Positions 30,373-59,498 of a stretch of DNA of 64,000 nucleotides are shown here, piece after piece. The DNA is from Phorcus lineatus (Eukaryota > Mollusca > Gastropoda > Trochida > Trochidae). The stretch lies in NCBI GenBank assembly GCA_921293015.1, contig OV121097.1, forward strand, positions 16,739,924 through 16,803,923, written 5' to 3'. The notes beneath the pieces were generated by a model. It was given only the letters and a program-made list of their open reading frames with translations. It had not been told where the DNA came from and searched no databases. A program made the translations under genes and the position numbers. Position 1 is the first letter of the stretch. Every line of letters starts with the position of its first letter.

Positions 30373-33300
30373 CTACATTTTTGCTAACGAATACACATTT
30401 TCATTTGGATCGATGATATGGACTACGGTAACGCTCTTTTCACCTTTTGTACTTCCGGCATTCATCTGGTTTGACTTCCGCTTCCGTTTTTCCACGACGC
30501 TGTAAATCGGCCCTCTGGGTACGAACTCTGAACCCTTGCCCCCATCGCTGTTAGCTCTTCCATTCTTCCTTGGCGTGACCATCATGCTGGGCGTTCTTCC
30601 ATCTACGTCAGCTACAGTGAACACCGGCCCTCCATCTCCCTCAAATCGAGGCTGGTAACCGGAAGGGGCAGCACCATCACTCAGAGCCCTTTCATTTCTT
30701 CTCGACACGTTTCCAAGGCTAGCTCTTCTTCCTTCGACCTCTTCGTACTTGAAGTCATCAGTGAGAGAGAAGGTTGGTTTTTGTTTGTCCAGCAGGATGC
30801 TATCTGATATCTTCCTCTTGACCAGAGATCTTCTCGGGCTGACATCAGCGTACCTTGAATCGGGAAAGTATTGAGGAACAACAGGCGAACTAGTAGACAA
30901 TCTTTGGGCGGCAGATTTTCTGTCGTTAACCATTTCATAATCGCCTTTACCCATCGAGGAAGATGTCTTCAAATCAGTTACCCTCAGTTCAATATTGTTA
31001 GAGTAAGTTCCGTCAGTGTTTCTTAGCATAGGGCGGATCTTTTCGATGTCCTCATACTCTGTCGTTTGGTCACGGGACCAAGAGATGGAAGCGGAAGAAG
31101 GACCGCCATTTGCATTCTGGGCCCTTGGATAGGTCTTCCGCTTATCAACTTTTGCATAGATCGGTTTACCCTCTTTCTGAGATTTCGGTTCTTCAAGCTT
31201 TTCATCATCTTCTCGTCTTTTGTTTTGTTTGTAAGTTGAGCTAGAGAACCTGTTTAAAAGGTACATACATTGAACATGTGTTGCTACAAATTTCATCTTG
31301 ATATACAAATATTGACCTTAATCTATTTGACCAGGGCCTCCTTTCACAGTTACCTTAAGGACTTAATGAGGCCCTGAATTAAATGGGCAATGTTAAGGAT
31401 AATAATGACACAAGCTCTGAAAGGCTACATTGACATTCTCTCCCTAACCCATCTTTTCATATAACCTTTGTTACATGAGTTTCCTATTTCTATATTTTCA
31501 ATTCCCCAAGTCGAGACTATTAGCATAGTATAAATCTTTATTTATATTGGATCAAACACCTTGTAACTGTGTTATGCATAACATAAGTGTGTTTAATATA
31601 ATCGGAGATGTAAGACGATTATTGATCGGATAAAAACAGGGATTGTACCCTTATATAAAATTTTCCATTTATGCTATTTTGCAAAACAAGAGAAAAATGT
31701 TCAAATCTAAAAATGGAAACCAGAACAAAATCAGAAAAAACAAAATTGCTAAGGGCACCACTACACCAATAGTTAAAGAAAGTATATTACATGTTAAGTC
31801 TAATGAAATAATATTGCACCGAATTTGACGGTGCATACCCCCTCTATGTACCAAGTTCCGTTTGTTATCATGGAAACAAATGGAAACGAGAATAACCTGC
31901 AGAAACAAATAAAACAACTCCGTCAATACGTCTGTACATGTAAGAAGTTTCGTAAAATGATACTGATAGTTTTGGAGACAGAGGCCGGAAAAGGTTCCTC
32001 AACCCCATTAAGTTCAAATTGTTTCCATGGAAAGCAAAAAACATATATAAACCTGAATAACCAAAACAAACAACAAACCACTGGGTCGTACCACATAAAA
32101 CGTTTCAAGATATGGCCCGTAAACGAAAGAATGTCCGAATTATGGAATTACGTACCGTGGCGAAAACATCGTTCCTAAGCATAGCTTGAAACATTTTCTA
32201 TGATTACAATGACTTTAATTTATTCAGATACTGCATCAGGACATTGTGAACTGCTACACATATGTTTTTACCGCATATGCAATTGGTCTTATATTTCAAG
32301 TAAAACAGATCTTGTTGATACCATATTTTGATAATTCATAAATGGTAAGCAAGCATAATACAATATGGAACATGAAAAACGGACTATCTATACCCATTTA
32401 CTACCCCTATATCTCTAAAGTCAAGTAGTTGAATATCAGTCTACCACTCGCTCTCGTTCGAGAACAACATCAATGTCTAGCTTTTAACAATACTCGTGGT
32501 GCAGTATTAGTATATAACTCGCTCTCGCTCGGGACATACTGATATTTTTTACATGTGTAACCTCCATACATCATCCTTCTTATTACTCACCTCAGGCACA
32601 AACAGAGGACAACGATGGTTGTGAGAAGAATTAGGAATGTGTTGACAGCTCCGTACAAAAGAATCGCAATCTTCGGCCAGAACAGATCTGGAAACACATC
32701 ATGTATCCGTCAATCAATTGTAAACGAAATGCTTAAAAGTTCCATTTTGTACGATTTAAAAAAATATATTTGTTTAGGTTTGTTATAGGTTAATTGTGCC
32801 ATAACAATAACACCTTTTTCAGTTTAGATGAAATGGAAACTTACTTTTTTAAAACTTTTTTGTTTTCATAAGTAAATGGTTTCTTACGTCTTACTTATTA
32901 AATATTACAATTTCAACGATATAGCACTGCCATATCGGCTTAATGACTAGCGAAAAGGCATCTTAGTTGTGATTATTTCCCTGATTCTGATTCTATCTCT
33001 ATATATATCACAGCTATGAAGGGATTTTTGAAACAAGAATTTCAACCTAAATCCCTAGAAAGTCTTGATATGACATCAGCATAGAGTAAATTTCAAAATA
33101 AAGTTTTAGTCCACCGTGACTTCTTTTTTTCTCGGGATGATGTAATAGAAAACTTCAGATATCATAGAATCAAAGATAATATAATACAAAAATTGATAAA
33201 GATTCTGTTTTATAGAATTAAGAATTATATTCTTTCAATCTTAAAAGATTTAGAGATCATTAGTATGATGGTTGACCATAGCACTGGACGTCAGACATGT

Positions 33301-36300
33301 TCCTGTTGTAGGAAATACAGATGGTGCCTGCCACTGAAATAGATGAAAAAGGAGAGCCATTGACTCTGTATCTCAACATGCTTCATTTTTCATATTGTAT
33401 GGGAGGGGGGGGAGGGGGGGGGGGGGGGGGGGGGCGTGACATTGCGTCACATTTGGTCACAAAATCTGTCCAAATTATTATTTCAAATGTATGACTTAAA
33501 TGTTTTGGGCATGACTTGAGATATGTTGAAAATATAGGAGGATAGTGATAAAAAATGGATTTTTTAACTCTAATTAAAAAGAGTGGAACTGATGCTTATT
33601 TGTTGAAACGTTTCTAAAATTGTTTATCGACTGATATCGTATAATATAATATTTCTATAATATTTCTAATATATTAATATATCTGGTTATCTAGGAAACG
33701 TTTTATTCTATCATATATTAAAGAGTTTTTACTATCTAAAAAAAATCAAACTACTTTACCATCCGAGTCCACTATATTATTATTTTCCCTTAGGGACTGT
33801 TCTTCTTGTGGGATAGAAACGCTTTCTGGGTGAAGGAAAGAAGAACCTGAAAGAAATTAATAATTAATTACTTACCTTTAGCATCGTCATCGGGGGTACA
33901 AGCAGGACTTCCGGCTTGACGGTTGAATTCAAGAATACTGAAAGGATTATCTGAATATATGAAGTATGTCTCAGATTCCTCCAGGATGTATGTTAATACA
34001 GAAATATGAGATCCCGAGATGTTTTCAGCTTTTTTATTATCAATTGTTCGATTTCCACATCGAACTTTTACCTCGCTATCAAAAAGTGACATCACTTTGA
34101 TAACTGTGTCTCTGTAATGACTTCGGAGTGAGATTTCTCTATAAGCGGAGACAGATGGAACGAAAACAAAATCCCCATCAACTTTTGACAAAAGAACCAT
34201 CACTTTTTCTGTCGAGTTGAAGTAAATACTCTCACCGGGATTGAGGTGGCCATCAAACGTGTATGCGATTGAACCGGTCCTATTTGTAGATGTCACATCT
34301 TTCAATTCTTCTCGCGTACCATTGTTCAAAGTTATCGTTGTTCCATTCGTTCTGCTGATTACTTGAAAATTGAACGGAAATTGATCATCAACGGAAATTG
34401 CATACTGATCTCCGTATAAATGTAAGGGAGGTAATTGCTCGTAGGAAAGAATAGTTCCATTTTTAGAATACGCTCCACAAAACACTGCAATTGCATGGGA
34501 ACTTCTAATGAAGGTTCCTAAAAATGATCCTTTCGTATCCAACGACAACGTTTGAAAGGATTCCAACGATAAGTAAATAATAGAGCTGTCATTGTAGTGG
34601 GTATTGTTGAAAACGACCTCGTTGTCGATTCCAAGAGTGATGTTTACTTCCGTGTTCCTGTGAACTGTTGCTAGTACTAACAGAGAACTATTTTTGTCGA
34701 TTGGGGGTTTGTAATACACAATGTACTGTGTTCCTAACGAAGTAAGAGGCAGTGGATTGACATTAACTTGACTCTTCCGGTAACGCACTTTGACTGATGT
34801 TGCATTCACAAGAAAACTCTTATTTCCAGTTCCTTCTGGTGAATTTGGTATGGTTGAGATTTTGTGATCAAGGTAATCAAGACGTTGAAATGACTGTACG
34901 GAATGCCAAGAGATTGCCTCTATCACCGGCTCTTCATCTGTCTCAATGAGACTCAACAAGAAACTCTCACCTAAGATTGAAAAAAATACTTTTTGAAATA
35001 TATTTTGAAAAATGTTTTGATATTGATAGGAAATTATGATAACACTATAAATGCATTTATCTTGCGGTCAAATTGGTATATGTATTACAAATGAGGACTC
35101 ACTTAAATATTTTGTAGATGTTATTTAAAAAAATAAAGAAGAAATTTCTAAGGTATATTGAAAAATAGAAAGAATTTGTTGTTGAGATAAGCAGAACAGC
35201 TTTATCTCTGTAAACTATGTCTCTATAACTTAAAATATTTCTTACATACATTAAACGTATTGCTGTTGCATCAAGCATAGCGACTGTAGTTTTTGCCATT
35301 TCCATACGCATTTAATGCAACGTCGCATACATTCATTTCGACTATTTAGAATTCACCATATAGCCTAAAAACGTGCATATCATTTTAAAATATCATGTAG
35401 CAGATTACACTCAAGCGTATGGAAGCCTCTTAATACCAAGCGATGTATAATCTGTGCGTAACTTACATTTACGAAATATTTGTGTACGTCCGACCAAAAA
35501 ATACTGTTTTGATATTTTTAAAATAGTGTATATCAATGTTAAATGTTATCTAACAAAGCTTTTTAACCTACATAGTAACATAACCAGAGTTTTAATGTTG
35601 TATTTGCTCATATGTTCGTATCATTGTGTCAAACAACAATCATCCTTGATAGACGTCCAGTTCTGCTACGTCATGAATGAAATAAACATGACGTCATTAA
35701 CATTGCGTATTGATTAAAAACTGCAATGTACAGGTGTTAAAAGGTTTGTACGGAACCCTTGCAAATACTTATGTATTCCTATTCTAAAAAAATAATATAA
35801 ATATATAAAATACAGATATAACTTTCGATTGTATATTCTATTTAATTCAAAAAGTTTGAACAACCCAAATCGGATAAGATGAATACCTCTGCAGTCAAAG
35901 CATTTATCAAAAAGACATGGTAATAAACATCCCCCGCGAAAAAAAGCTGGGCTAAAAGATCATCGAAAAGAAATATTGCCTGCTTCTCAGTTTATATCGA
36001 GTTTGGCGGATCCAAGATAGGTGTCACTGGCCAGAGGTTCTAATTCACCTCTCCTCCCCAACCGCGTATATTGTTTTTTTTCATAAAAAGTAAAAAAGAG
36101 TGACTCTTGGCGGTGATATCGTCGAAATGAATGTATGCGACGTTGCATTAAATTTTTTTTACAGCCGCTATGCTTGATGCAACAGCAATAAGTTTAATGT
36201 ATGTAAAAAATATTTGAAGTTAAAGATATACTTTTAGAAGTATATTTCAGACTTTGACCTCAGTTTTTTCACACAGATAAAGCGGTCCTCCCCAACAGCG

Positions 36301-36526
36301 TATGTTTTTTTAAATAAAAAGTAAAAAAGAGTGACTCTTGGCGGTAGGAGTTGAACCACTATATCCCCTTTCCACGGATTGTAGCGCCGTCGAATATTGC
36401 AATACACATACAGATACTCTGTTGTTATATAAACTTATGTTCTGTAAATATAACATAACATATTGTTTACTTACATGTACAACAGCTGATGCACCACAGA
36501 GAGAAAACAGCAAAAACGACAGACAT
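30373..36526 (-). CDS. Receptor 1: IgGFc-binding-domain transmembrane protein with tyrosine-rich tail, 735 aa
   Basis: Exons: 36475-36526 (signal peptide MSVVFAVFSLWCISCCT), 33876-34970, 33760-33846, 32591-32687, 30373-31249. All have GT/AG borders and compatible phases (2208 nt). Exon 2 is one whole IgGFc-binding (FCGBP N-terminal type) domain of about 365 residues: ESFLLSLIETDEE at its start, NPLPLTSLGTQYIVYY, then AIAVFCGAYSKNG, and about 15 N-x-S/T sites. Exon 3 is a short stalk; exon 4 is a TM helix (KIAILLYGAVNTFLILL and on to CLCLR). The 291-residue tail is basic and serine-rich with tyrosine motifs YAKV, YEDI, YSNN, YEMV, YADV, YEEV and YSVV. Type I surface receptor by layout. It is transcribed away from receptor 2; the start codons are 5.1 kb apart. 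Ligand unknown; a signalling role is inferred from the tail. Confidence 0.87.
33260..33333 (-). CDS. Possible alternative terminal exon of receptor 1 (secreted form)
   Basis: A good acceptor (CATCTATTTCAG) is followed by an open stretch in the phase that fits either exon 2 or exon 3 (both end in phase 1). It encodes AGTICISYNRNMSDVQCYG plus QPSY and a stop, and has two cysteines. Use of this exon would end the protein before the TM helix. It lies in the intron between the stalk exon and the TM exon. Could equally be chance. Confidence 0.35.
33402..33434. repeat. Poly-G tract in receptor 1 intron
   Basis: Thirty of 33 bases are G on the plus strand (C in the pre-mRNA), directly upstream, in the gene's sense, of the possible alternative exon. 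Such a tract is prone to sequencing error and to length change. Confidence 0.9.
35255..36240. repeat. Foldback-type inverted repeat around receptor 1 signal-exon intron
   Basis: Arms about 35255-35343 and 36121-36235 are inverted copies (GTCGAAATGAATGTATGCGA, then CGTTGCATTAAAT, GCTATGCTTGATGCAACAGC and GTTTAATGTATGTAA). The spacer of about 780 bp holds no recognisable gene. Confidence 0.7.
36040..36405 (-). mobile_element. Repeated SINE-like segment with B-box
   Basis: The phrase CCTCCCCAAC(C/A)GCGTAT followed by AAAAAGTAAAAAAGAGTGAC and TCTTGGCGGT occurs twice (36052-36115 and 36288-36348). On the minus strand the second copy is preceded by GTGGTTCAACTCCTACCGCC, which fits a polymerase III B box. 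Probably two copies of a tRNA-derived SINE 3' region. Confidence 0.45.
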
Positions 36527-36823
36527 GTCTGAACAAAATGCAGTTCTTGCAGAGAGAAGTGGTATCATTATCAAAACAATTGACAAGGAAAATAAAAAAA
36601 AGTATTGTTTCCTTATCCAAACTTTATCAATGAAATGTAAAAATTTGGCACTTCAACTACTTCCCTATCAGTTGTTGTCAATTGATTAAATTCACCAACA
36701 GGAAACTATTTACGACAACACTGTGAATAAGATACGAAATGCACCACTTGTATAACAACACGGCACCTTTCTGTCCTCGAGGAAACATTAACCAAGCATT
36801 CAGTAAATGTAGTTCATAGTTAC

Positions 36824-37255
36824 CTTTAAAGGGGCAGGAGCAGTTTTTATAGTGAACAAAGTGATCTGAGGAAAAACGAGGAAACGTTTCATGAAAGAAC
36901 ATAATGAACATAACATGTTCGGTTAGGCTACGGGAGTTCATTTCCCTACCAATTTTCTCTCCCAACAGAGAACTTTGGCTAGGAATTAATGACGGAGCTT
37001 AATCTGTGGAGAGAGAATGGTCCCTACCTGAAATGATTAAAAGGTGTTCACACTGAAATGGCCGCAAGTACATTTCGCATTACATTTCGTACTTTCTTTT
37101 ACGGCTACGGGTAACCAGGTCGAGTAATGATGTGTTCGACCAGGGACCTTATATGTATATAAGGTCCCTGGTTCGACTCGCTGAAGATACAGCATTTGGC
37201 ATAATCATATACGCATTGTAGAGTTTAAAAAAACTACTGCTACTGTCCCTTTAAG
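36824..37255. mobile_element. MITE A copy 2
   Basis: Left CTTTAAAGGGGCAGGAGCAG; right TACTGCTACTGTCCCTTTAAGG. It contains a separate exact hairpin at about 37139-37172 (ACCAGGGACCTTATAT and its complement). Confidence 0.8.
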
Positions 37256-37855
37256 GTTTCGTTACACTTTAAACATTTAAACACCTTAATGATATAGAAC
37301 TACTTCAAATCAAAGCTTTTGTGTAAGGTTAAAGATTGTATTTAGATATAAAAAATAGCTACATTTTCATTAATAACCCAGTTTATCATTATAAAAAGAT
37401 ACAATCATGTAACTCATGTAAAACATAAACATTTCATTGCCGAATCAGTTTTTGGTATACTGCAATGCGCGATGAGAAGAGGATTTTGTCTTCATCGAAT
37501 GACTTTGAACAGTGACCTAAGGCAAAGAAATAAAGAAGAAAGCAAGTATATGATGTAACCCAAATGAGCACAAATGGTTGTCGCAAAACGTCTCCGCTGG
37601 TGCTAACCTGGATGCAGAGCTATCCGTGAGGCCATTGGTATAATTTCGTTTTGGTTATGCATTAGTCAGAAGAGCTCTGAATATACGTGGAAACTCTCTC
37701 GTGTACAAATGAAACATAGGAAGAAATCAAGAAACACAACGTGTTGCAAAACTTTCGTCTGGGTGTATATCTCGTCATAGCTAAACAGATTAGAACAGGA
37801 AGCGTAACGTATATATCGCACCGGTAAGTAAACGCAACGTAAATAGAGATTAGAG

Positions 37856-37968
37856 GAAGTGTGTCATATTTCTTTTACGAAACGAGTGTGAATTTTTTAT
37901 TACCCGAGCGAGAGCAAGGGTTATACACATATTCGCGTGGGTTTCGTAAAAGTCATATGACACATTCC
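37856..37968. repeat. Short inverted repeat
   Basis: GTGTCATATTTCTTTTACGA and TTTCGTAAAAGTCATATGAC are inverted copies about 60 bp apart. MITE-like, family not identified. Confidence 0.55.
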
Positions 37969-38510
37969 CGATGATACAAATTTCTTTGTTACCGATTCTT
38001 TTCCATTTCAAACGCATGGAACTATTCAGAAAAGGCTTCCTTCCCTTGCTATGGCCCGCTCCAGTGACGTCACGAACAATGGTTTTATGACGTCACAGGC
38101 GACGATATACGGTAACTCGCGCTCAGACAATCGTTGCTAGGCAAGGGTGATATGGGTACATGTGCTCATATTAAAAATAATGAATACCCATTTTGGTAAT
38201 AAACGTTATATGAATATATGAATATGACTAAAAGCTTTCATATTAAGGGTTAGTGGTTTTGTTAAATACTACAAGGACTTGTAAGGGGTATCGAAAAGGG
38301 GATTGAGTTTAAAATTTTGGTTGCAAGAATTGTTTTGCTTCAAATTTGACCCTTTTCGATGGTAACAGAAACCAATTGTACATGAGTGATGGCATGAATT
38401 AAGCCTGTTTAGACTATATTTACAACTTTTCTGGTTATTCATTCAATATGGCTACAACATAGTTTGTAGCTTCCTTCATTTACATTTGACTGAATGTGAT
38501 TTTTGAAATT

Positions 38511-38976
38511 GTTAAGTGATACAGAGTATGTTTTATATTTTTTTAGCTTTAATAAGAACGTAAGTACCATATTCCGTAGTTATGTTGAAATTAACTTGCA
38601 TCTCTATCTTTAAAACTACCTTAATTATGCACTTTTCTTGTTTTTCAATGACAATAAAAAAACTCAATAAATATCAATAAATAGAGATTCATGTAGTTTA
38701 GTTAAATGGCCTTCTTAACACTACCAACCAATATTTGTCGTTGTTTCTACAGTTAATACGTTTCCAAAATTATGCTTAAGTCATTGTTGCTCGTCATTGT
38801 CCGGTTTCGATCACAAATCATGACTTTAACCAGTTTGTCCACGTTATTTTAAACTGATAAGTAACTGATAACTAACACACTAGTAATTTTCAGAAACAAC
38901 CACCACTTCTCGATAAAATCAACCATTAGTTAAGTTTGATGTATTAATATATAACAACATACTCTGTGCCCATTTA
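38511..38976. mobile_element. MITE B copy 2
   Basis: Left GTGATACAGAGTATGTTTTA; right AACATACTCTGTGCCCATTT. Core with AATTATGCTTAAGTCATTG and TGTCCGGTTTCGATCACAAA in the middle. Confidence 0.75.
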
Positions 38977-39144
38977 ATCATGAATATATCTTTGACTAAA
39001 ACCTTGTTTATCTAATTGACTGAGGTAGAATATTAATATTTTTATTTGTGCGCTGACACGGCTGAAAATATATTACCTTTTTACCTGAGGTATTCACGAA
39101 GACGTTTTTTTACCACCAAACATATGATAAAACAATATATTTTC

Positions 39145-39620
39145 TTAAAGAGCCACTCCGTGATTTTCATAACATATTATTTATCTTTGATACGAACCTA
39201 AATGTCATATGTGGTGATATACAATCAAAACATTTTAAATTTTCATGTCCAAGAGACATATATATCACAAATACTGGTTTTCCATGAAAATCTAAAAACA
39301 ACCTCATAAATGCACAGAGGTGTAGTTATCACGTCCAATGTACATGGATACTAATTATATAACCTAACAAACACTACCAACTCCTAACTGCCCTCCTGAC
39401 TGTTTTAGATAAGTCTCCAAAATTACGTTTGACTATTTGACGCGCGCCACTGTCCGGTTTTCCATCACAAATGCGACGTTCCACCTTTATATTGTCGCTG
39501 TAAAAAAACAATAAGCTTTGAAATGTGTCTTTTGGTAACAGTCGATACTTCGCGATCAAAAGACACCATTGATAAAGTTTGGCACATATGATTCCAACAA
39601 CTCACGGAGTGGCTCTTTAA
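39145..39620. mobile_element. MITE C, TIR TTAAAGAGCCACTCCGTGA
   Basis: Perfect 17-bp ends AAAGAGCCACTCCGTGA and TCACGGAGTGGCTCTTT. The inner core (CAAAATTACGTTTGACTATT, GACGCGCGCCACTGTCCGG) is that of MITE B, so C is a relative that acquired different ends. Confidence 0.8.
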
Positions 39621-39663
39621 AGGCCATTAGAATGTGAGTATCGAAACAACATGAATGCTTCAA

Positions 39664-39870
39664 GTTACACAGAGTATGTTTCATGAATTTGCATATGGCT
39701 TAAATGAAAGCCAAAATACCATAGGCCCTGATTTAAGTTAAAATCACACTTCTAAAATTACATTTTTATCTCTAAAATCCCAAAATATGATAGTTTCTTA
39801 TTTTCAATCATAATCGAAAAACTACTCGGAATGAGCTGTGTCTTTTTAACGTCAACAAAGCGAGAGGATA
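39664..39870. mobile_element. MITE B copy 3, left half only
   Basis: Begins TTACACAGAGTATGTTTCATGA and follows the family for about 200 bp, then stops before the core. Confidence 0.55.
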
Positions 39871-39952
39871 TTCTGTATCTTAATGAAGTAGTTAAACGTA
39901 TACAAAAATACGAAATATGATATTAGCTATATAATCAATGTCGCTCTCATAA

Positions 39953-40398
39953 AGGGACACAGAGTATGTTGTAGGGGTCAGATATGTTGAACTTCATAAA
40001 TGGTTTTATTTGTTCAAGAAGTAAATGTTGTTTTTGCAAATTTATGTCTTAATGCTTATCTGTTTAGTGCATTAACAATAGACAGGTTAGAGTCGAGATT
40101 TGTAATCGAAAACCGGACAATGACGCGCGCAAATGACTGAAACGTAATTTTGTAACCTTATTCACAGCAGCCTCAAGGTCACATATAGGTTGGTTGTACT
40201 TAGTAGATCATTTAACTAATATACACGAAAATTGAACGCAGAATTTAACACTCTTAACAATTTAAAGTAATTTTTCACTTGCAATTAAAAAGAGAAAATG
40301 ACATAATTTTGGCATTTAAGAGTTAAAGAAACTCAAGTCAAATGGTATTTCGGCTTTTATATAAGCCACATACATATTTTGAAAACATACTCTGTTTC
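39953..40398. mobile_element. MITE B copy 4, reversed
   Basis: Begins AAAGGGACACAGAGTATGTT and ends GAAAACATACTCTGTTTCC. The core appears in reverse (AATCGAAAACCGGACAATGA, CGCGCGCAAATGACTGAAAC). Confidence 0.75.
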
Positions 40399-41631: not shown

Positions 41632-44600
41632 ATGGGTCCCTCTAAATTGTGTCGTGTTTTCCTCCTACTAGGACTTCTAACTGCTATTTTAGGTGAGACT
41701 GCTGTTTTATTCGATGTGCTTCAGAATTTCAAGATTTATACGTTGTTGGTTTCACGACGTAAAATGTGCGGATTCATTCTGCTCTGTAGCGGGCTTACTT
41801 GAATTATACGTCACTGTAGATGAAGTTTTTACTTTTTCTTAATTCAGGAAAATGTACATATAACACTACGATATACAAACTTAATCTCCGTATACAAAGA
41901 CAATCATTGTTTACATTAGATTATTAACACCATGTGTAGTTGTAGTCATTCCTTTAATTATATTTACATTGTGTTCACATGTTTTCGGTCTTGCATAATA
42001 ATCTAAATCGGTATCTTGACAAAAATCGTTTTAAAATTAAAAATAAATAACTTTAGTCAAGTTCATTAAAGATTAACCTTAGAAAACAATTCCTTATATG
42101 GAAAGGGATTGACCTTCACCTGTGAAGTGACTTGTAAGTAAGCGTTGACGTACGTGTGAAATTGAGTACGTCGAGACGTCATCCCTTGCCAGGCGTCACG
42201 AACGTATTGTTCGTTGACCTGCAAGGAGCATTCAGTAGATGAGTATAAAGAGGATATATGTCTTTCCTTTGAACTGTTTATCTCATCGAGTGAGGTAGAA
42301 AATAGGTATTTCGAGAGTGGCGCGGTCACGAGTGAAATATTAACTTTCCTTCCTCGAGAGATGAGATAAACTTGATATAAGTCAAGGGAAAATATATAAT
42401 CAGTTCATTATACGACTTAATTTGTGTTTTGACCTCTTTTAAAAGCGTATATAGGCCCTAATAAAAAGGAACAAGAATTCTACGTAAGGTCATAATAAAT
42501 TATTGATCTCACGACGTCAATTGGGTGACCATCCTCCCGATAGTTTATTTGACTAATACAACAGGGTATCTCACTCTCATTTATATTATTATTATTATTC
42601 ATATATACATTTTTGCTTCCAAACCTCTTTTATTTGTTTAATAATCTTATTTTTAGTGTTTAAGGGACAGTGCTCATTTTAAAAAATTCGGTCTGTCATA
42701 TGTTCACCTGAGCAGAATGGCATAAGAGAGGCGGAACATATTTTACATTTAACTCTATTTGTAGGGTGGCTGTCTGGCGATCATAATCCTATAACGTTCA
42801 GGTCGAATGAATGGTTGTCGAGTGTTTTTGGAAAAGTGTGTACATTAACGAGAACCTTAACCGGACCTCTTTTAGTATTAATCCTAATTATAATAGACGG
42901 TTAGTAATTTTACAGATGACATTGTGTAGGATTTGAGAAATAAGCCTCAAATTTAGCCAGGTTGTGATTTCTAGTCACTCTGAAAAAATAGCTCTTGTCG
43001 GTCCTGTAGAATAATTGTGTACGGTTTTCGATATTATCATTTATACTTTGAAAACTAAAAATATTGATTATTTTCAGCTTCCCGTGTCCCTTCTCTTCTA
43101 ATGTACTAACATAAGCATGTACTACCTTGAAATTAAAATCAATAACTCTTCTGTCCAAGCTTCTTCTTCAGTTTTAGGACGAGAGGTATGTGGTGGTGTT
43201 TCTTCAGATTCAGGGGACGAGAGGTATGTGGTGGTGTTTCTTCAGATTCAGGGGACGAGAGGTAGATGGTGGTGTTTCTTCAGATTCAGGGGACGAGAGG
43301 TATGTGGTGGTGTTTCTTCAGATTCAGGGGACGAGAGGTATATGGTGGTGTTTCTTCAGATTCAGGGGACGAGAGGTATGTGGTGGTGTTTCTTCAGATT
43401 CAGGGGACGAGAGGTATGTGGTGGTGTTTCTTCAGATTCAGGAGACGAGAGGTATGTGGTGGTGTTTCTTCAGATTCAGGAGACGAGAGGTATGTGGTGG
43501 TGTTTCTTCAGATTCAGGGGACGAGAGGTATGTGGTGGTGTTTCTTCAGATTCAGGAGACGAGAGGTATGTGGTGGTGTTTCTTCAGTTTCAGGAGACGA
43601 GAGGTATATGGTGGTGTTTCTTCAGTTTCTGGAAACGAGAGGTATATGGTGGTGTATCTTCAGATTCAGGGGACGAGAGGTATATGGTGGTGTTTCTTCA
43701 GTTTCAGGGGACGAGAGGTATGTGGTGGTGTTTCTTCAGATTCAGGGGACGAGAGGTATGTGGTGGTGTTTCTTCAGATTCAGGGGACGAGAGGTATGTG
43801 GTGGTGTTTCTTCAGATTCAGGAGACGAGAGGTATGTGGTGGTGTTTCTTCAGATTCAGGAGACAAGAGGTATGTGGTGGTGTTTCTTCAGATTCAGGGG
43901 ACGAGAGGTATGTGGTGGTGTTTCTTCAGATTCAGGGGACGAGAGGTAGATGGTGGTGTTTCTTCAGATTCAGGGGACGAGAGGTATGTGGTGGTGTTTC
44001 TTCAGATTCAGGGGACGAGAGGTATGTGGTGGTGTTTCTTCAGATTCAGGGGACGAGAGGTATGTGGTGGTGTTTCTTCAGATTCAGGAGACGAGAGGTA
44101 TGTGGTGGTGTTTCTTCAGATTCAGGGGACGAGAGGTAGATGGTGGTGTTTCTTCAGATTCAGGGGACGAGAGGTATGTGGTGGTGTTTCTTCAGATTCA
44201 GGGGACGAGAGGTATATGGTGGTGTTTCTTCAGATTCAGGGGACGAGAGGTATGTGGTGGTGTTTCTTCAGATTCAGGAGACGAGAGGTATGTGGTGGTG
44301 TTTCTTCAGTTTCAGGAGACGAGAGGTATATGGTGGTGTTTCTTCAGTTTCAGGAGACGAGAGGTATATGGTGGTGTATCTTCAGATTCAGGGGACGAGA
44401 GGTATGTGGTGGTGTTTCTTCAGTTTCAGGAGACGAGAGGTATGTGGTGGTGTTTCTTCAGTTTCAGGGGACGAGAGGTATATGGTGGTGTTTCTTCAGT
44501 TTCAGGAGACGAGAGATATATGGCGGTGTTTCTCCAGAGCAACGACCTGACCCAGGTGATGGTGGCGGCGGGGGAGGAGGGGGGGCTGGTGCCATGTTGT

Positions 44601-47274
44601 GTCTCCACAACTTGGCTGGAACCAATCCCTACAGGCAACACCCTTCAACCAACTCATCGTCTCGGATACATCCGCCATCATAGGATCCGGGGTGGAGGAC
44701 AAAGCTGTTGTTGTTACTACTGTTGGTGCTTTAAGCTTATACATTGGATCGGAACATAGTGTTTATTCCCCTTTACCGTTTTCAGACCTTGGACAGAGGT
44801 ATATTATTTCATCGTGTCATATCGGCACTTCTATACAGTTGTTCATAGCTGCTTCATCTAATTTGAGAGTAGATATCGTCTTTAAAATGAGTGGTACCTT
44901 AACATATGGTGAACGTGTGTACACTGATGGGGAAAAGTTGTCTTTATCCTTACAGAAATACCAAACTTTTTCCCTTAAAAGTAAAAATGATATTACAGGA
45001 ACTATTGTCAATGCAACTGAGCCTATTGCTGTGTTCATAGCAATCGTAAGTTCAAATATATATCGCAACAGGAATGTCACTACCATAGCAACAGAACAGC
45101 TTGTTCCGGTAGAGCATTATGGGAAAGAGTTTGTAGTTCCGGTGTACGACAGTTTTGCGACGTATTTACTTCAGATTCTTGGAGAAGACACGAACACGGT
45201 TGTCACTTTCAACAATGGAACTTCCTTAACAATAAACAGTATCTACGAACAGAGAGTTGGACCAAGTGAAAACCTTCACTTTACAACAGACAGACCTGTC
45301 ATGACAACATTATGTCGAAATATCACGCGATATAGTGGTTTCACCGCTGTTCCTCCAGTAACATCCTACGGTAAAAACGTTGCACTTTATGTTGGTCCCT
45401 ACACCCTGAAGATATCAACAAAAAGGTCGTCGTCGGTTACTGTTTTGAGTTCCCAGAGTGTAACGGTGTCAGTTACTTGGGAAAATGTTACTAACACAGA
45501 TTACAAAGTAGGGAAGGTTACTTCTGCTGCAACAGTCCTTACGTCTACGGAAGACTTCAGTGTGATGGTGTTTCATACTGACCATGTTCACAGAGGCGGA
45601 TATACTGGTCCTTACACCAGTGAACTACCAGGTGGGATTTTTAGTCTTAAAGGGGAAGAAGCACGTTCTTTAAATAAAAAAATCTCACAAAACGAAAATA
45701 AATGTTTCCGATCGCAAGACAATGTTTTTAAATCAAAATAAGCAGTTTTTAAATGAACGTACCATGATCGAGTAAACTTCAAATGATTACACAAAAAATA
45801 ACCGCCAGTTGTTTTTGCTAAGACTTCATGTTTCTTCTACTACTATGGATGTACAGGTGGAGTAATGAGATGTTTAACCCTCTAAAGATAATTCATTTGA
45901 CATAAACTAATTTTCATTGGGGTAAATTTTTATTTCATAGATGTTTAAAAAACGTGCTATGTACAGCCCACTGCGCTACTGTGGACCCAGTTATATTTCC
46001 GCGCATATAGTACTATAATAATCTGGAGTATAATGTTATCTTTCCTCAGATATGCATATAGCACACAAAATAATGGCCTACAGTGACATTCGGGGAATCG
46101 GAAATAAGTGCCGGGTTTCCAATAATGACCACGATAAGTGTCAATTGTGCCAATGTTTCAAAAGAAGGTTTAAAAAATACAATTTTTTCCCCCTTTCTTC
46201 CGTTAAAGAATATGGCTGCTGGTATCTTTACAAAGTACTGGTAACGCGCATAAGCATATATAAAATTTATTCATAAATTGTCAAATTGCTTTATGCACTC
46301 TAAAGGTATATATAACTTTCAATCAATAAAGAATATTCTCCACCTACTTGCTAACGCTGATTTAACCCCGCTCGAAAGAATGTATCATATCATCTTCTCT
46401 ATTTTTCACCTTGTATATTCCTAAGAAAGAGCTTTTCTAGTTTCATGCCCGTTAACTCCGATTCTGAACGCCATATCAAAAATTCTACGCGGTATATCTT
46501 TTGTATTTGTGACAAGTTGTATTGTATAATATACGACGGAAACCTTGACTTTATCTTCAAGAAAACCACGATATCTTGGCCATTTTACTAATTCAAGTTA
46601 CTGCTATATCTCATTTTGTGTCAGCTTACACTTTCAAAGTCCCTCACCCGCTATATCTTTCCATAATGCAATTTATCAAAAACGGTTTCTATGTGACAAA
46701 ATTAGAAAACAATAAATACAAGTGTATACCACTTACATGATTTATGTTCAGTCTTTTTTATTTAACCGAAACGGCAACACAGATTAAAGGTAAAGAGTTT
46801 GGATTTTGGATAAAAAAACGACTTAGTCTTTTCTTTTTTTTTATTGAATAACAATGAATCTAACAAACTAATCGAAACTAGATTAGAAAATAAATATCGT
46901 TTTTACCAGCAGATTCAACCTCAGTTTTTCCAAAGCTTAATGTCACTGTAACAAGAAACGAGGGTAAGTCAAGTTTTTGTAATAACTAACTATAAAGATA
47001 TTAAACTTTTGTTCAAGAAGCGACCTGTTATTGTTTAATGACATACTGTATACATATAAACATAAATCACTTATCCTGTTATAGTTTTGTTTTAGATGAT
47101 TCAGACGGGGCTGTCATCGCAGTGGGAGTCTCGCTCGCTGTAATCATCGTTATACTCGTCGTCGTCCTCGTCATCCTTCTCTTCTTTATGTGAGTGGTTT
47201 TATAATGTTGCTACTGCTAACTATTACTGCTACCACTACTACTACTACAACTACTTCTACTACTACTCGTGCTG

Positions 47275-47324
<50 letters not shown>

Positions 47325-48294
47325 GCTACTACTTCTTCTACTGCTACTACTACTACTACTACTACTACTGCTGCTACTACTACTACTACTACTGTTACTA
47401 CTACTACCACTACTACAACTAGTGCTGCTACTGCTGTTACTACTGCTACTGCTACTACTAGTTCTACTACTACTTCTACTGCTACTGCTACTAATACTAC
47501 TTTCATTACAATTTCTATTACTTATGCTATAAGTACCAGATACTTGCTATTGTTGTCTCTGTAAATTAATTATGAGAAAATATATACAAGCTTTCTTCTG
47601 AAAGTGTCACAGAGTATGTTTCATAAATATATATGTTGCTTAGACACACATATCATGTTGTAAAATCAATCATGTCGTAAAACTTGCATTTTTCATAAAA
47701 GTACCTTAATTATGATATTAAATTTTTTTCATTAATAATCGGAAAACAGTCATATTATTGTAACGAGGTCTAATATTAACGTCCAATTTACCTGTAAACT
47801 AGTCATTTGATCCACTTCATGTTTGTCTTTGTGTCTGCTGACAATAAGTTTCCAAAATTACGTTTGAGTCATTGGCGCGCGCCACTGTCCGGTTTTCGAT
47901 CACAAATCGCGACTTCAAGCAGTTTATTCTCATTATACTGAACTGATAAGCATTAAAATGGTAATTTTCAGATAATACCAGAAGGCCTTAATATAATAAC
48001 ATATATTTGACATATTTGATTCCGAAAACATACTCTGTGTCCCTTTTAAATCCATTTTATTTCTAATTAAGAAAAAGGAAGACAAAAATGGACACCAAAA
48101 GCAGCACCTCTGCCATCGACCCTCAAGTCATGTATCCTGTAGAAGGAGAGCCGACTTCTTCTACTCCAACCGACAACTCAGTTCAAGGAAGGAGCTCCAG
48201 ATATGCAGGTCTTGGTATTAGAGAAACTGTTGATCATGATTATATGGCGTTTCGTTCAGTTGACATCTACAGTCAACACGAAGGGAGAATCTAG
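41632..48294 (+). CDS. Receptor 2: IgGFc-binding-domain transmembrane protein, disrupted frame
   Basis: Exons: 41632-41692 (signal peptide MGPSKLCRVFLLLGLLTAIL), 44506-45631 (IgGFc-binding domain), 47096-47189 (TM helix, about 25 hydrophobic residues), 48072-48294 (tail). The domain exon starts GDERYMAVFLQSNDLTQVM, matching the start of receptor 3 domain 1 (GYDFLIAVPADI). It later has YSPLPFSDLGQRYIIS, EPIAVFIAIVSS and VPPVTSYG, in the family order. Phases agree for all joins, except one extra base within the G7 run at 44579-44585, after which the domain continues in another frame. The tail frame meets TAG at 48292, then stays open to a second stop at 48409-48411, encoding YEDLVEMDLEHRYYTAL, an ITAM-like spacing. 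The gene may be a recent pseudogene, a polymorphic allele, or a real gene with an extra intron (44556-44634) or assembly error. Confidence 0.75.
43176..44537 (+). repeat. 38-bp minisatellite, about 36 units, built on a splice acceptor and exon start
   Basis: Unit: GGACGAGAGGTATGTGGTGG then TGTTTCTTCAGATTCAGG. Variants are few (GTATAT or GTAGAT for GTATGT; TTTCAGG for ATTCAGG). Each unit contains a consensus-like 3' splice site (TGTTTCTTCAG and CAG again 5 bp on) and, except the last unit, a strong 5' splice site (GAG/GTATGT). The last unit reads GAGAGATATATGG, lacks the GT and runs on into the receptor 2 domain exon. One reading frame is open through the whole array only because 38 is not a multiple of 3 and the unit has no stop. 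Those 136-497-codon frames are not separate genes. Confidence 0.95.
45646..45975. mobile_element. MITE A copy 3, inserted at the receptor 2 domain-exon donor
   Basis: Left CTTAAAGGGGAAGAAGCACG; right AACGTGCTATGTACAGCCC. The left end lies 14 bp after the donor CCAG/gtggga at 45631. The domain frame reads on through the element for 36 codons to a stop at 45741. Confidence 0.6.
45976..47095. other. Receptor 2 intron, no feature recognised
   Basis: AT-rich intron sequence. The 74-codon frame at 46052-46276 has no support. Confidence 0.4.
47206..47510. repeat. (CTA)n trinucleotide repeat
   Basis: About 100 imperfect CTA/CTG triplets in the receptor 2 intron after the TM exon. It yields long poly-Leu, poly-Thr and poly-Val frames on both strands, all artefacts. 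Confidence 0.95.
47599..48050. mobile_element. MITE B copy 5
   Basis: Left GTGTCACAGAGTATGTTTCA; right AAAACATACTCTGTGTCCCT. Best-preserved core: AAATTACGTTTGAGTCATTG then GCGCGCGCCACTGTCCGG. It ends about 20 bp before the receptor 2 tail exon. Confidence 0.8.
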
Positions 48295-48479
48295 TCTGGT
48301 ACTGAAGGAGGGGCAGATAACCGAGGCTATGAAGACCTTGTTGAAATGGATTTAGAACATAGATATTATACGGCGCTTCACTCGGATGACAAAAAGAGCA
48401 AAATATAAACAACCCTGGTCTTCAATATACTGACCTCATTAACGGTGCCCGTTATAAGACATTATTATTTGTGTATTAT

Positions 48480-49630: not shown

Positions 49631-49639
49631 AGTTTGTAA

Positions 49640-54646: not shown

Positions 54647-57600
54647 ATGGCCGACCCTCCTAACTATTTTATGACAATATTGATCATCGAATTCATTTTC
54701 TTGGGAAATGTTTCAGGTAAGCGATTTTGTATATCTACTATCTATTCTTAATGATAGACTCTGTTTTTAATTTTGAATGAATGTATTATGGATAACCATT
54801 ACTAAATCTGTTAATAAATTTTTTATATAGACACGACATCAGTATGAGTAATGCTTTATGAACAAATTTAGGATGGTTCAAACTTGATGTCAAGATGTTT
54901 AACAAAAGAGGGAAACATGGTGAAAATCACTATTTGATAATATATTTTTGAAATTTTAACACTGGTGGTGTTTATACCCCTGTATTTATGTTTCATATAT
55001 TACTGTTGTTGTTTAACAATTGAACTCTAATGTTATGTTGTAATTTTTAGCACTTTGTGTAAAATACATATATATTTAAAGCGCAAATGTCAAACTCTTT
55101 TGTTAAAGGTCACCATGTTTTCCCTAGATTATTGAATTTCATTCTTCGAGGAACACAATTAATTTTACTCCTCTTCCGAATACATACGAGGTACCCATTT
55201 ACTGTAGGATGGACTGGGACAAACAGTAGTGTTTTTAATCTAAGTATACTGTGATAAATATTAAAAATCTTCGTGATACTTAATAAAACATATTTTTAAT
55301 GTTTGTGTTTTTTCAATTCGATTTTTTATTGTATTTCGGAAACAGATTAATTTACAGACTTTCAACATGTAACTTACGAAGCAGGTATTAAACCAATCAA
55401 ACTGATGTTTATAGATAAATGTGTTTACATCATGATGATTAGACACTTACTCCTCCAGGATACGACTTCTTGATAGCTGTTCCTGCTGACATCCGGGCCA
55501 CCCACTCAACCATCTACTTCCAGGCCGGGGAATCAGGGGGTCGGGTTCAGGTTCAGTATCCGCATCAGTCCAGTGACGGGCACCTGTTACTGAACAATGG
55601 ACGCCACATAGAACTGATTGATGCCAAGATGGGTGTTACATCTGGTATTGAGAACAAAAGCATTGTTGCCACATGTAGTGACAGAAGTACAAAGGTTCTT
55701 GTGTATACGGAAAACTACAATTACAATATATTCTATCCACTTCCTCATTCTAAGCTTGGAACAAGATACCTGGTTTCAACTTGTCATTTTGATGGAGATT
55801 CATCGTTTCTCGTTATTGCAACTCAAGGTCAAATTACTGATATTAATATCACGAGGTATCATAATCCAGATCTAAATGACGGGACCTTCAGGAAAACCGA
55901 AACCACTTTCTTGAAGCTGAGAGAATATCAGACCTTCACCATGACAGAGGATTTTGATTTGTCTGGAACTCTGATAATGAGTTCCGGAAGAGTTGCTGTA
56001 CTTTCAGGAACTGTACGGAATGGTAAAGTGGTGTCCTATACTCAGATGTATCCAATGGAACAACTTGGAGAAGAATACGTTGTGTCTGTTAATGGTTCAG
56101 CTAAATATCAGCTTCAGATCACAACGGACAGGTCCAACACAAGGGTAACCTTCAACAACGGACATGAGGAAACCATAGACACTGACCTTCGAAGGAATCT
56201 GTCACAAAAGGAGGATCTTTACTTCAAAAGCAGTTCCGCTGTCATGGCGACCATCTGTGGGGTAGGGGAAGACAGATCCATTACCCACATACCACCAGTT
56301 TCCGAGTACGGTACATATAGAGGATACCCCATGTACCCAGATGACAAGGTAATGAAGTTTATTTCAGATGGTGATATTCAGTTTTATGAAGACAGTACTT
56401 TCTGGGAGAATGTTACTGATACAAGGTTCAGGGTTGGTACGACTAGACTTCACAATGATACGACGTTGAACGTGGTTTTTAATGGCCTTGTGATGGTGTT
56501 CCGCGAGCACACAGCGATTTATCTACCACCCGAGAATTCTCAGAAAACAGGTCTGCAACGTTGTACAGGTGAGATTCCTTATTAAAATCTCATATTTTTT
56601 GTTTATGTAAACTAAATATAGACCCATAGATGCCTTTATTTGCGGAATATATCCATCGACTGATGAAAGCGGGTTAGTACACCCGCAAAGAAATACCTCT
56701 AAAAATTTGACAGTCTAAGAATATCTTTAAATGGTCTTTCTTTAATAAAACACGGAAAATGGTGTTATGAGTAAGGGGTAAACCTTAGAAAATAAAGCTT
56801 AGCTGAATGGGACCTGGTTTCTAGGAATAAGATAATCTTAAGAGCAAGAGAATTGATAACATAGCTGATTAAACGAACACAATAAAAAAAGTCTTAGTAA
56901 ATATACGGGTAACGGTCTCTTTGTTTCCAAAACATATCACATTGCAAAATTAACACAGAAGCCGTCGAAGTGAATTATTTTGTTTTTTCATTACTTTTTG
57001 TTTCAGAATGTGAAGAGTACCTGCTAGCTCTGCCCTCCTCCGTCCCTTACATCACGGCTTCAACGACTTCTACATCCGGGCTCTGGAAGATTACATACCC
57101 GGATGTCGGTGTTAAAAGAAACCAGGAAGTTGACCAAACTAACGTCAGGGAGCTTCCACCAGGCAGTAGAGACGTTTTTGTGATTAATTCTGACTACGAA
57201 ACAAGTAAAGATGGCAAGAAAAAGGTCGTTTTGATTGAAGTAGTCAAAAACACCGAAATACATGTCTCAAACTTTGTAAACATGATTTCACCCCTGCCTG
57301 TTTCTGCATTAGGAACAAAATATATCATAAATTGTAAGGACTCTGAGGATATGACAGAGGTGTTAGTGATTGCGACCAATGACCAGAAAACTGAAGTTAA
57401 CATTAGATTCGGTTATGGCAGTTCTGTCCTCCATAATGGTAGACAGTATACCCAAGGAGATGAATGGAGAGTTAATCTTGATGAGTTTGACACACTCTCT
57501 ATAGAGAGTACAACATTCTGTGGGACCCAGATAGAGAGTCAAGAACCAATAGCTGTGTTTCTTGAAACTAAACCTCTACACTCAACTTCTATAAACTCGT

Positions 57601-59498
57601 TAAGTTCGTATGAACAAGTACTGCCTGCTTATCTCAATAGTAAGGAGTATGTTGTGTCCGTAGATGATCCCATGGACTACAGTATCGATGCTGCGTATTA
57701 TCTGCATATTTACTGTGAATCTTCAACCACTATCAAATTCAGTGATGAAAAGGAAGAAATTGTCTTTTCAAATCATTATGAAAAACTACTTGGACACAAC
57801 ACAACTGTTTATTTCAAGACAACATATCCTGTTCCCGTGTCACTCTGTAGGAGATTGAAGCAAAACAATACAACTGTACGAACATGCATGACTGTTCCTC
57901 CAACAACCATGTACAGATTTGATACAATACTGCCGATAAACATACCAACACCATCTTCTTACAAGATACTGTGCAAGCGAAATTCATCTGTTGAAGTCGT
58001 GCTTCAAACCGGAAGTATCTTGACACAAGAACTTCCGGTCACATGGGAACTCATCCAAGGATCAGAATTCAAGGTTGGAACTTTTCGTTTTGCGTCTTTC
58101 GTTCTAGAATTTAGCTCAAACATGTTCTTCCGCGTGAAGTCGGAGCAGCGATTTGCTGTTCTTGGATTTGATCAGTATTCAATCTTCAATGGTGGCTATG
58201 ACGTCATCGAGGAAAGAGATAATGCGCCCAAATTAAGCGGAAAGGAAAACGGTGAGATCAATTCCGAAATAAAACTATCTAGATATTGTTTTTCAAAATG
58301 ATTAAGAACTACGATTTTGACAACTTGACTAATCCCATATATTAAGTATAAATAAATCGCGGTTGACACGCAGATTTGCTGCGTAGGACTTTAGAAAATG
58401 CGCAATCATGGTGCAATAGATAATGTACTTTTTGTGACGCAAAGTATGAATTGCGAAATTCATCAACAAAAAACTACAAAAGCTTTAAAAATGTAAAAAT
58501 GTTTGAATTACTGAAAATAATCGATTATCGAGTAAATGATTTTTTGGTTCGTCAATATTTGTATATCTTGTTTCAGCAATGAATTCTTATTTCCACAGGT
58601 TCTCAGATCTCTCTAGCTTTGGCTGTAGGAGTGTCTTGTGGCGTGATCATCCTTCTACTCGCTGTTGTATTGGCCGTCAGTATATACAAGTGAGTTTCAA
58701 GTATATTATCTTACTGTTTTATCACAAGAGGCAATATGACCGTCAAACAGGTAAACGAATTCAGAGGCCAAATTACTCGTTTGATAAAAATTATCTTTCA
58801 TGGACTTTCGTTTAGCATCAATTTAACCATCCTGCTACATCAGCGTATTTGTCTCCGCTTAGCTCCATCATATACTCTGATATCCTTTGGCCTTATACGC
58901 TCGTATCTAACTGTTCGAATTCTCATCCGGGTTTGTGCCGCTATTGCTGAATGCGAGTCATTTCATTGGCTTCCTATATTTAGGATATCAGGGTATATGA
59001 TGGAGCTATGCGGAGACAAAAACGCTGATGTAGCAGGATGCAATTTATCTTTTTGGCAAGGTGTTGATATAAATTTGGATGCCTCGATTAACTTTTATTC
59101 ATATGTTTCCTTAAATATCATTAAAATATATACTCACATATATACTTACATATAAAAGTACATGGCATATTGGGGTCAATAGTCGGTTTCGTTTACCAAA
59201 CAATTTGTCACACAATTTGAAAGGCTCGAAAACTCTAATGACAAGATGTTATATGTTTCACGAGACATTGTCTTTCTCTCAACCTTTATTTTATTCTGTC
59301 AGATGGAAAAGAAGACGTGGACGAGTTGACAAATATGTTGCCAAGGAGGTCAAAATGAAGTCCAACAAAGTTATACTTGACGCTGTTGACACCAGAAGGC
59401 CTAAGAGATCACCAAACTACTACTCTTTTTGCCGGGATAACTTTGATACGGCAGAAGATTTCAGAGGAACAGTAAAAGTTAGCGAGACATTTATATGA
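54647..59498 (+). CDS. Receptor 3: two tandem IgGFc-binding domains, TM helix, short basic tail, 903 aa
   Basis: Exons: 54647-54716 (signal peptide, hydrophobic core MTILIIEFIFLG), 55459-56568 (domain 1), 57007-58251 (domain 2), 58599-58689 (TM), 59303-59498 (tail). All GT/AG, phases 1-1-1-1-2, 2712 nt, no break. Domain 1 begins GYDFLIAVPADIRATH; marks include IFYPLPHSKLGTRYLVSTCH and GRVAVLSGTVRNG. Domain 2 begins ECEEYLLALPSSV; marks include ISPLPVSALGTKYIINCKD and PIAVFLETKP. The TM exon encodes SLALAVGVSCGVIILLLAVV. The 65-residue tail starts KWKRRRGRVDKY, with YVAKEV and NYYSF but no clear ITAM or ITIM. Each domain is one exon bordered by phase-1 introns, so domains can be duplicated or swapped without frame change. 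FCGBP-type domains are known from mucosal proteins; a recognition role here is inference. Confidence 0.9.
58828..59040. mobile_element. Foldback MITE G in the receptor 3 TM-tail intron
   Basis: Arms CATCCTGCTACATCAGCGTA, TTTGTCTCCGCTTAGCTCC, ATCATATACTCTGATATCCT (58828-58886) and their inverted copies (58983-59040), 3-4 mismatches over about 58 bp. A piece of the same end (ACAAATACGCTGATGTAGCA) recurs at about 63134-63155. Confidence 0.75.

What the first reader, a model, noticed from the sequence alone, without database searches (positions are those of the whole stretch)
30373..59498. Cluster of three IgGFc-binding-domain receptors with three unrelated cytoplasmic tails
Three genes share signal peptide, FCGBP-type ectodomain exon(s), phase-1 borders and a TM exon, yet the tails differ: a 291-residue tail with seven tyrosine motifs, an ITAM-like tail, and a short basic tail. 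FCGBP-type domains are best known from large secreted mucus proteins. Here they are fitted to single-pass membrane proteins with what look like activating and inhibitory ends, the layout of paired immune receptors. That reading is inference; exon structure and motifs are read directly.
Basis: partly seen in the sequence, partly recalled or inferred. Interest (0 to 1): 0.85.

Follow-up and report, generated by a model that had tools for sequence, protein, structure and literature searches.

The report
Mucus-protein-type receptors with signalling tails
Three neighbouring animal genes put a domain best known from a mucus protein on the outside of the cell and attach different tails inside; they are distant members of a large gene family in which many other members carry what looks like the activating motif of vertebrate immune receptors, though one of the three looks broken.

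Summary
The core observation holds. Four window exons match Pfam IgGFc_binding (PF17517) well above its cut-off. Three genes (A on -, B and C on +) join them, by phase-1 borders, to a transmembrane exon ending in phase 2 and a last tail exon. Corrections: gene B is interrupted twice (ectodomain frame lost; in-frame TAG in the tail); A's signal peptide is only a candidate; A has six, not seven, Yxx[ILV] motifs.

The larger finding lies outside the window. The same genome lists 128 IgGFc_binding matches. In two cluster areas, tail searches found 26 tail exons, each downstream of such an exon on the same strand. I read 11: all 11 have a loose and 8 a strict ITAM-like tandem tyrosine motif. B's tail shows the same spacing twice, the strict copy after the stop. 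The genome has SYK-type and SHP2 SH2 domains.

Best reading: a large ITAM-type receptor family with an FCGBP-N ectodomain. The window genes are divergent members, not classic paired receptors (A, B and C2 are 25-30% identical to C1). Signalling and immune role are inferred.

The parts
36475..36568 (-). Gene A: candidate signal-peptide exon (unsure; ATG at 36568 or 36526)
   Evidence: only candidate exon in the scan of 34971-44000, - strand
33876..34970 (-). Gene A: IgGFc_binding ectodomain exon, phase 1 in, phase 1 out
   Evidence: PF17517 73.9 bits; borders read
33760..33846 (-). Gene A: short juxtamembrane exon, phase 1-1
   Evidence: splice signals; coordinates
32591..32687 (-). Gene A: transmembrane exon, phase 1 in, phase 2 out
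30373..31249 (-). Gene A: last exon, 291-residue tail, 12 Tyr, 6 Yxx[ILV], one ITIM-like (SRYADV) and one ITSM-like (TEYEDI)
41632..41692 (+). Gene B: signal-peptide exon, ends phase 1
   Evidence: only candidate in the scan of 38000-44500, + strand
43177..44538 (+). 38-bp minisatellite (35.8 copies) across the intron 1/exon 2 border of gene B; its consensus unit holds an acceptor-like TTTCTTCAG
   Evidence: sequence
44506..45631 (+). Gene B: IgGFc_binding ectodomain exon; frame lost near 44575-44586 against relatives
   Evidence: PF17517 96.0 bits for 44602-45630; no frame open throughout
46925..46963 (+). Gene B: short juxtamembrane exon, phase 1-1
   Evidence: splice signals, coordinates
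47096..47189 (+). Gene B: transmembrane exon, phase 1 in, phase 2 out
48072..48294 (+). Gene B: tail exon to first stop (TAG), holds YAGL-x9-YMAF (loosely ITAM-like)
48295..48408 (+). Gene B: same frame after the TAG, holds strict ITAM YEDL-x9-YTAL, then TAA
54647..54716 (+). Gene C: signal-peptide exon (ATG could be 54614, 54647 or 54671), ends phase 1
   Evidence: strongest donor of four candidate sites
55459..56568 (+). Gene C: first IgGFc_binding exon (C1), phase 1-1
   Evidence: PF17517 79.9 bits; groups with first-domain exons of the C11 cluster, support 90/78
57007..58251 (+). Gene C: second IgGFc_binding exon (C2), phase 1-1
   Evidence: PF17517 71.3 bits
58599..58689 (+). Gene C: transmembrane exon, phase 1 in, phase 2 out, GxxxG core
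59303..59498 (+). Gene C: last exon, 64-residue basic tail without ITAM or Yxx[ILVM]

Best explanation
The three genes are divergent members of a large family of single-pass (type I) receptors in this animal. The outside is one or more FCGBP-N (IgGFc_binding) domains, one exon each; then come one TM exon and one tail exon. Shown by sequence: the layout recurs in two other cluster areas, where all 11 tails read carry ITAM-like tandem tyrosine motifs, mostly with a 9-residue spacer, and 9 of 11 have YxN sites. Inferred: ligand-driven clustering lets a Src-family kinase phosphorylate the two tyrosines, a SYK-type kinase docks and starts uptake or activation, for example in hemocytes or epithelia, and YxN sites recruit Grb2-type adaptors. 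Gene B belonged to this ITAM class but is probably non-functional as assembled. Gene A, with six Yxx[ILV] sites, probably recruits SH2 proteins one at a time (SHP2, PI3K or adaptors) and may inhibit or scaffold. Gene C keeps the ectodomain and TM but has lost, or never had, the signalling motif.
For: PF17517 on 4 of 4 exons and 128 matches listed genome-wide. TM exons with the same phases and a similar core in B, C and paralogs. Four tail queries gave 28 distinct places at E <= 10: 26 in IgGFc_binding clusters (19 on C39, 7 on C11), each downstream on the same strand of an IgGFc_binding exon, 25 of 26 within 6.5 kb, and 2 elsewhere at E 1.4 and 4.2. 25 of the 26 were found at E <= 0.002, one (C39:34720330) only at 0.02. 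11 of 11 tails read have a loose ITAM, 8 of 11 a strict one; the spacer is 9 in 11 of 13 tyrosine pairs; within-tail shuffles give p at most 0.005 for each of the 11. dN/dS 0.32-0.46 for 9 of 9 pairs of C11 ectodomain ORFs. SYK-type SH2 exon at C5:49521689 (best PDB match SYK, 5e-15) with tyrosine-kinase pieces downstream on the same strand. SHP2 SH2.
Against: No transcript, protein or binding data. Pfam finds no ITAM domain in any of the 9 tail pieces scanned. ITAM-like strings also occur by chance, dozens in six frames of this window. The C11 and C39 tails are not linked by the sequence searches: the C11 query found only C11 tails and the three C39 queries none of the C11 tails, so their kinship rests on layout and spacing. 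In the C11 tail at 10926304 the usual first tyrosine is missing and the match is a different pair (x11). C, the C39:38.13 Mb gene and the five-domain C39:42.29 Mb gene show no ITAM in the tails found, and one of six C11 TM exons had no ITAM tail among its candidates. Tail dN/dS reaches 0.92 in one of six pairs. Immune function is not tested.
Confidence: 0.6

Rival explanations
1. Classic paired immune receptors: A inhibitory, B activating, C decoy or adaptor-coupled, binding the same ligand.
For: Linked genes, shared domain, ITIM-like and ITSM-like motifs in A, ITAM-like in B, SHP2 and SYK-type SH2 in the genome.
Against: A, B and C2 are 25-30% identical to C1, no supported clade of window genes, ITIM count in A not above chance, C without Yxx[ILVM] or charged TM core, B broken.
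Confidence: 0.12
2. Membrane-anchored mucus or adhesion proteins: the FCGBP-N domains tether the glycocalyx or mucus, and the tails serve endocytosis or cytoskeleton linkage rather than immune signalling.
For: FCGBP is a mucus protein (recalled); oyster IgGFc-binding proteins are discussed as mucus and adhesive parts (PMC6337334, passages read). Yxx[hydrophobic] in A could also be endocytic sorting signals (recalled).
Against: Tandem tyrosines, mostly with a fixed spacer, in 11 of 11 cluster tails read are not explained by anchoring or single endocytic motifs. Pfam found no VWD or TIL in the window exons scanned.
Confidence: 0.2
3. The window cluster is mostly decaying: A, B and C are relics of the family and only the C11 and C39:35 Mb clusters matter.
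For: B has a lost frame, an in-frame stop and a minisatellite in its exon border. A lacks a clear signal peptide. The window domains are on long branches.
Against: A and C ectodomain and tail exons are open throughout (A tail 291 codons) with usable splice sites.
Confidence: 0.2

Closest known systems
FCGBP / IgGFc-binding proteins (PF17517)
   Same: Ectodomain exons match the Pfam profile above cut-off
   Different: Known FCGBP is a large secreted mucus protein with VWD/TIL repeats (recalled; that the N-terminal domain is found in various organisms including bacteria is stated in PMC9505182, passages read). Here one or two domains plus a TM and a tail.
ITAM-bearing immunoreceptors (Fc receptor gamma, CD3, DAP12, Megf10/Draper; recalled)
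   Same: Yxx[L/I]-x6-12-Yxx[L/I] in 8 of 11 paralog tails read; SYK-type and SHP2 SH2 present in the genome
   Different: The ectodomain is an IgGFc_binding domain, and the ITAM sits in the same chain as that domain
Vertebrate paired receptors (CEACAM, Siglec, CD300 and others; search listings and abstract starts only)
   Same: Clustered, single-pass, tyrosine-motif tails
   Different: No near-identical ectodomains with opposite tails here; the inhibitory motif is not above chance
Botryllus fester co-receptors (FcoR), 53 loci so far, tails with ITIM, hemITAM or core tyrosine motifs (PMC12065747, passages read)
   Same: Large clustered invertebrate receptor family with tyrosine-based tails
   Different: Ig/sushi ectodomains, hemITAM rather than tandem ITAM, a role in allorecognition

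Membership tests
PF17517 IgGFc_binding | Profile score above the curated cut-off (25.6 bits) | tested here: met
   4 of 4 window exons, 71.3-96.0 bits
FCGBP mucus protein | VWD/TIL repeats in the same protein, secreted (recalled) | tested here: not met
   No VWD or TIL hit in the 4 ectodomain and 3 tail pieces scanned; a TM exon follows in all three genes
ITAM receptor | Yxx[LI]-x6-12-Yxx[LI] in the cytoplasmic tail (consensus recalled) | tested here: inconclusive
   Paralog tails read: strict in 8 of 11, loose in 11 of 11. Window: B only loosely before its stop, strictly after it; A and C no
ITAM receptor | Phosphorylation by Src-family kinase and binding of SYK/ZAP70 | not testable with these tools
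   A SYK-type SH2 exon and kinase pieces downstream exist in the genome, which permits but does not show it
Paired receptors | Near-identical ectodomains with opposite tails (recalled) | tested here: not met
   25-30% identity to C's first domain; window rows form no supported clade
Paired receptors | Inhibitory ITIM tail on one member | tested here: inconclusive
   A: one ITIM (p 0.38) and one ITSM (p 0.07) by shuffling; Yxx[ILV] 6 against 1.7 expected, p 0.002
Paired receptors | Genes clustered in the genome | tested here: met
   Three genes in about 29 kb
Single-pass type I membrane protein | Signal peptide plus one TM segment | tested here: inconclusive
   TM exon 3 of 3; signal peptide: sole candidate in B, best of four sites in C, weak candidate in A

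The most novel reading that the evidence does not exclude
An animal germline has built a multi-gene recognition system on the FCGBP-N domain instead of Ig or lectin folds: 26 tail exons of ITAM type by homology (11 read) in tandem clusters, with divergent outliers such as A, B and C, so that the domain known from mucus also serves as the sensing part of SYK-type immunoreceptors.
Probability: 0.45. Interest if true: 0.86.

Novelty: new variant of a known kind. Interest (0 to 1): 0.74.

Why it matters
If true, a domain whose function in human mucus is (as I recall) still debated would gain a second, testable role as the ligand-binding part of activating receptors. It might also help explain why an 'IgGFc-binding protein' gene is among those changed (there strongly lowered) by bacterial products in Manila clam (PMC7430831, passages read).

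Tried and rejected
Paired-receptor label: rejected for lack of similar ectodomains. 'Seven tyrosine motifs' in A: six by Yxx[ILV]. A tail shared by sequence between window and clusters: tail searches with A, B (before its stop) and C found themselves, plus one hit for A at E 4.5. The tail module on other ectodomains: two weak places outside IgGFc clusters (C11:29692611, E 1.4; C7:6028395, E 4.2 with stops). Fold: the model of C's first domain is all-beta (pLDDT 73, pTM 0.80), but Foldseek against PDB gave nothing at E <= 0.001 and no PDB chain matched the profile by sequence at E <= 10, so no fold is claimed. Gene-wide positive selection: not seen (dN/dS 0.32-0.46 in 9 ectodomain pairs). Pfam on 7 other window ORFs: nothing at E <= 0.01.

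Literature: ten searches of open PMC papers, of which I saw listings (most capped at 15-20 rows) and abstract starts, and passages found by term in PMC9505182, PMC12065747, PMC11817969, PMC7430831, PMC8242945 and PMC6337334; the terms were absent from PMC8382680. Nothing in what I saw describes an IgGFc-binding receptor with an ITAM. In the sponge Halichondria panicea paper (PMC8242945) the one passage lists IgGFc-binding among 'other domains' of its receptor figure.
Full report
WHAT IS THERE. The window is C39:16739924-16803923 of a 957.8-Mb genome in 74 contigs. Borders were read from sequence and placed by script. Gene A (- strand): ectodomain exon 34970-33876, short exon 33846-33760, TM exon 32687-32591, tail exon 31249-30373. 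Gene B (+): signal peptide 41632-41692, ectodomain exon about 44506-45631, short exon 46925-46963, TM exon 47096-47189, tail exon 48072-48294 and, after its stop, the same frame on to 48408. Gene C (+): signal peptide about 54647-54716, ectodomain exons 55459-56568 and 57007-58251, TM exon 58599-58689, tail exon 59303-59498. The extracellular borders read are phase 1, and all three TM exons enter in phase 1 and leave in phase 2.

IS IT MORE THAN CHANCE. Pfam IgGFc_binding matches 4 of 4 ectodomain exons at 71.3-96.0 bits against a cut-off of 25.6. Stop-free runs of at least 292 codons number 7 in the window and 0 in 20 Markov windows; two of the 7 are in the minisatellite of gene B, which is open in all three + frames. 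The TM-exon scan gave 6 hits in the window, 3 of them ending in phase 2, all in place; ten simulated windows gave 14 hits, 6 ending in phase 2. In 200 kb of other clusters it gave 8 phase-2 hits, 7 of them downstream of IgGFc_binding exons; it missed a TM exon before two C11 tails (10901116 and 10926304).

GENE B IS INTERRUPTED. In the exon starting after the last minisatellite copy, the frame that matches the family at the start is lost in a G-rich run near 44575-44586; the frame that matches the rest has stops upstream. The tail reads YAGL-x9-YMAF, then TAG at 48292-48294, then in the same frame YEDL-x9-YTAL, then TAA. Shuffle p is 0.02 for the first and 0.01 for the second, and such strings are not rare in six frames. 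The case that B once had two ITAMs rests on the shared 9-residue spacing and on the paralog tail at C39:34741029, which has two. Whether this is a pseudogene, an allele or an assembly error cannot be told without reads.

THE WIDER FAMILY. 128 IgGFc_binding matches are listed genome-wide (a match is a stretch, and one exon may give two), with dense clusters at C39:34.7-35.14 Mb (36 matches) and C11:10.8-11.7 Mb (17 matches; counted). Five of six TM exons tested in the C11 areas are followed by a tail exon with an ITAM-like motif; of the four 5-kb pieces read from the C39 cluster, 4 of 4 are. Searches with four of these tails, merged, give 28 places at E <= 10: 19 in the C39 cluster, 7 on C11, and two elsewhere (E 1.4 and 4.2). 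All 26 cluster tails follow an IgGFc_binding exon on the same strand, 25 of 26 within 6.5 kb, one at 12.4 kb. 25 of 26 were found at E <= 0.002; C39:34720330 only at 0.02. The searches link tails within each cluster, not between C11 and C39. I read 11 of the 26: 11 of 11 have Yxx[LIM]-x6-12-Yxx[LIVMF], 8 of 11 the strict form, 11 of 13 tyrosine pairs have a 9-residue spacer, and 9 of 11 have a YxN site. In one of the 11 (C11:10926304) the usual first tyrosine is absent and the match is a different pair. That YxN suits Grb2-type SH2 domains, and the ITAM, ITIM and ITSM consensus forms, are recalled. Ectodomain ORFs of C11 paralogs (stop to stop, so with some flank) show dN/dS 0.32-0.46 in 9 of 9 pairs; tail exons 0.39-0.92 in 6 pairs.

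RESULTS AGAINST. Not every member has an ITAM. The five-domain gene at C39:42.29 Mb, the gene at C39:38.13 Mb (122-residue tail, found only at its own place), window gene C and one C11 TM exon show none. Of four further single loci fetched (L038-L041), L039 is this C39:38.13 Mb gene, L040 gave a doubtful TM, and L038 and L041 nothing. Pfam sees no ITAM domain in 9 of 9 tail pieces scanned.

PLACE OF THE WINDOW GENES. In a tree of 33 domains, receptor-type domains (26 rows, with all four window domains) split with support 100/99 from 7 rows of loci L001-L008 (L007 gave no usable row); C's first domain joins the first domains of the C11 cluster (90/78); A, B and C's second domain are unresolved on long branches. 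Rows under about 180 aligned residues were dropped, only domains from loci I had fetched are in the tree, and the ectodomains of the C39:34.7-35.14 Mb cluster are not. B and C share the TM core (small-xxx-small, then a run of I/L/V) with the clusters; A is divergent.

MACHINERY. Of 48 SH2 matches I read 26: three stretches with two each and 20 single ones. One is SYK-type (best PDB match SYK 5e-15, ZAP-70 next at 1e-12, SHP2 3e-8), with tyrosine-kinase pieces about 14 kb downstream on the same strand; that they are one gene is inferred. One pair is SHP2: the first SH2 of the pair was tested. That others look like Src, Grb2, Csk, PLC-gamma and Tec types is my reading by eye.

STRUCTURE. AlphaFold2 on C's first domain with the four window domains gave an all-beta model (pLDDT 73, pTM 0.80) without a confident PDB match.

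MECHANISM. Shown by sequence: domain, layout, motif recurrence, cluster linkage, presence of candidate effectors. Inferred: membrane location, phosphorylation, SYK-type recruitment, immune role, ligand. The likely working is an ITAM receptor with its sensor and motif in one chain. A may be a multi-site docking or inhibitory member, C a member without signalling motif, B a broken ITAM member.

PRIOR WORK. Ten literature searches of open PMC papers showed, in the listings and passages that I saw, no IgGFc-binding receptor with ITAM tails. Most subscription papers are not held, and Lang et al. on FCGBP origins was seen only as a citation (not held), so novelty is provisional. Papers seen in passages treat these proteins in bivalves as mucus or adhesive parts (PMC6337334) or list them among responding genes (PMC7430831; PMC11817969). 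Confidence in the best explanation was lowered from 0.62 to 0.60 on checking, because the searches do not link the C11 and C39 tails by sequence.

Noticed in passing
window 43177-44538: A 38-bp minisatellite, 35.8 copies, spans the intron/exon border of gene B; its consensus unit holds an acceptor-like site, and the 38-bp period rotates the reading frame, so all three + frames stay open.
   Followed up: partly
window 47211-47501: A (CTA)n repeat of about 97 copies lies directly behind the TM exon of gene B.
   Followed up: no
own genome C39:34906546 and C39:35025714: A tail exon and a second place 119 kb away are 100% identical, which suggests a recent segmental duplication or a retained haplotype in the assembly.
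   Followed up: no
own genome C39:42285033-42298331 (L031, L032, L037): Five tandem IgGFc_binding exons, three of them nearly identical, followed by a TM exon: a five-domain member without an ITAM in the pieces read.
   Followed up: partly
own genome C12 and C11:50 Mb (L001-L008): A separate, well-supported group of IgGFc_binding domains with the highest Pfam scores; no phase-2 TM exon in the 1.5-kb flanks scanned.
   Followed up: partly
own genome C1:63811300-63815100 (L042): Two Csk-like SH2 exons in tandem, 3.3 kb apart, read by eye.
   Followed up: no
own genome C11:10875514 onward (L021): A long ORF (508 residues in the scan) that looks by eye like a reverse transcriptase of a mobile element, inside the C11 receptor cluster.
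   Followed up: no
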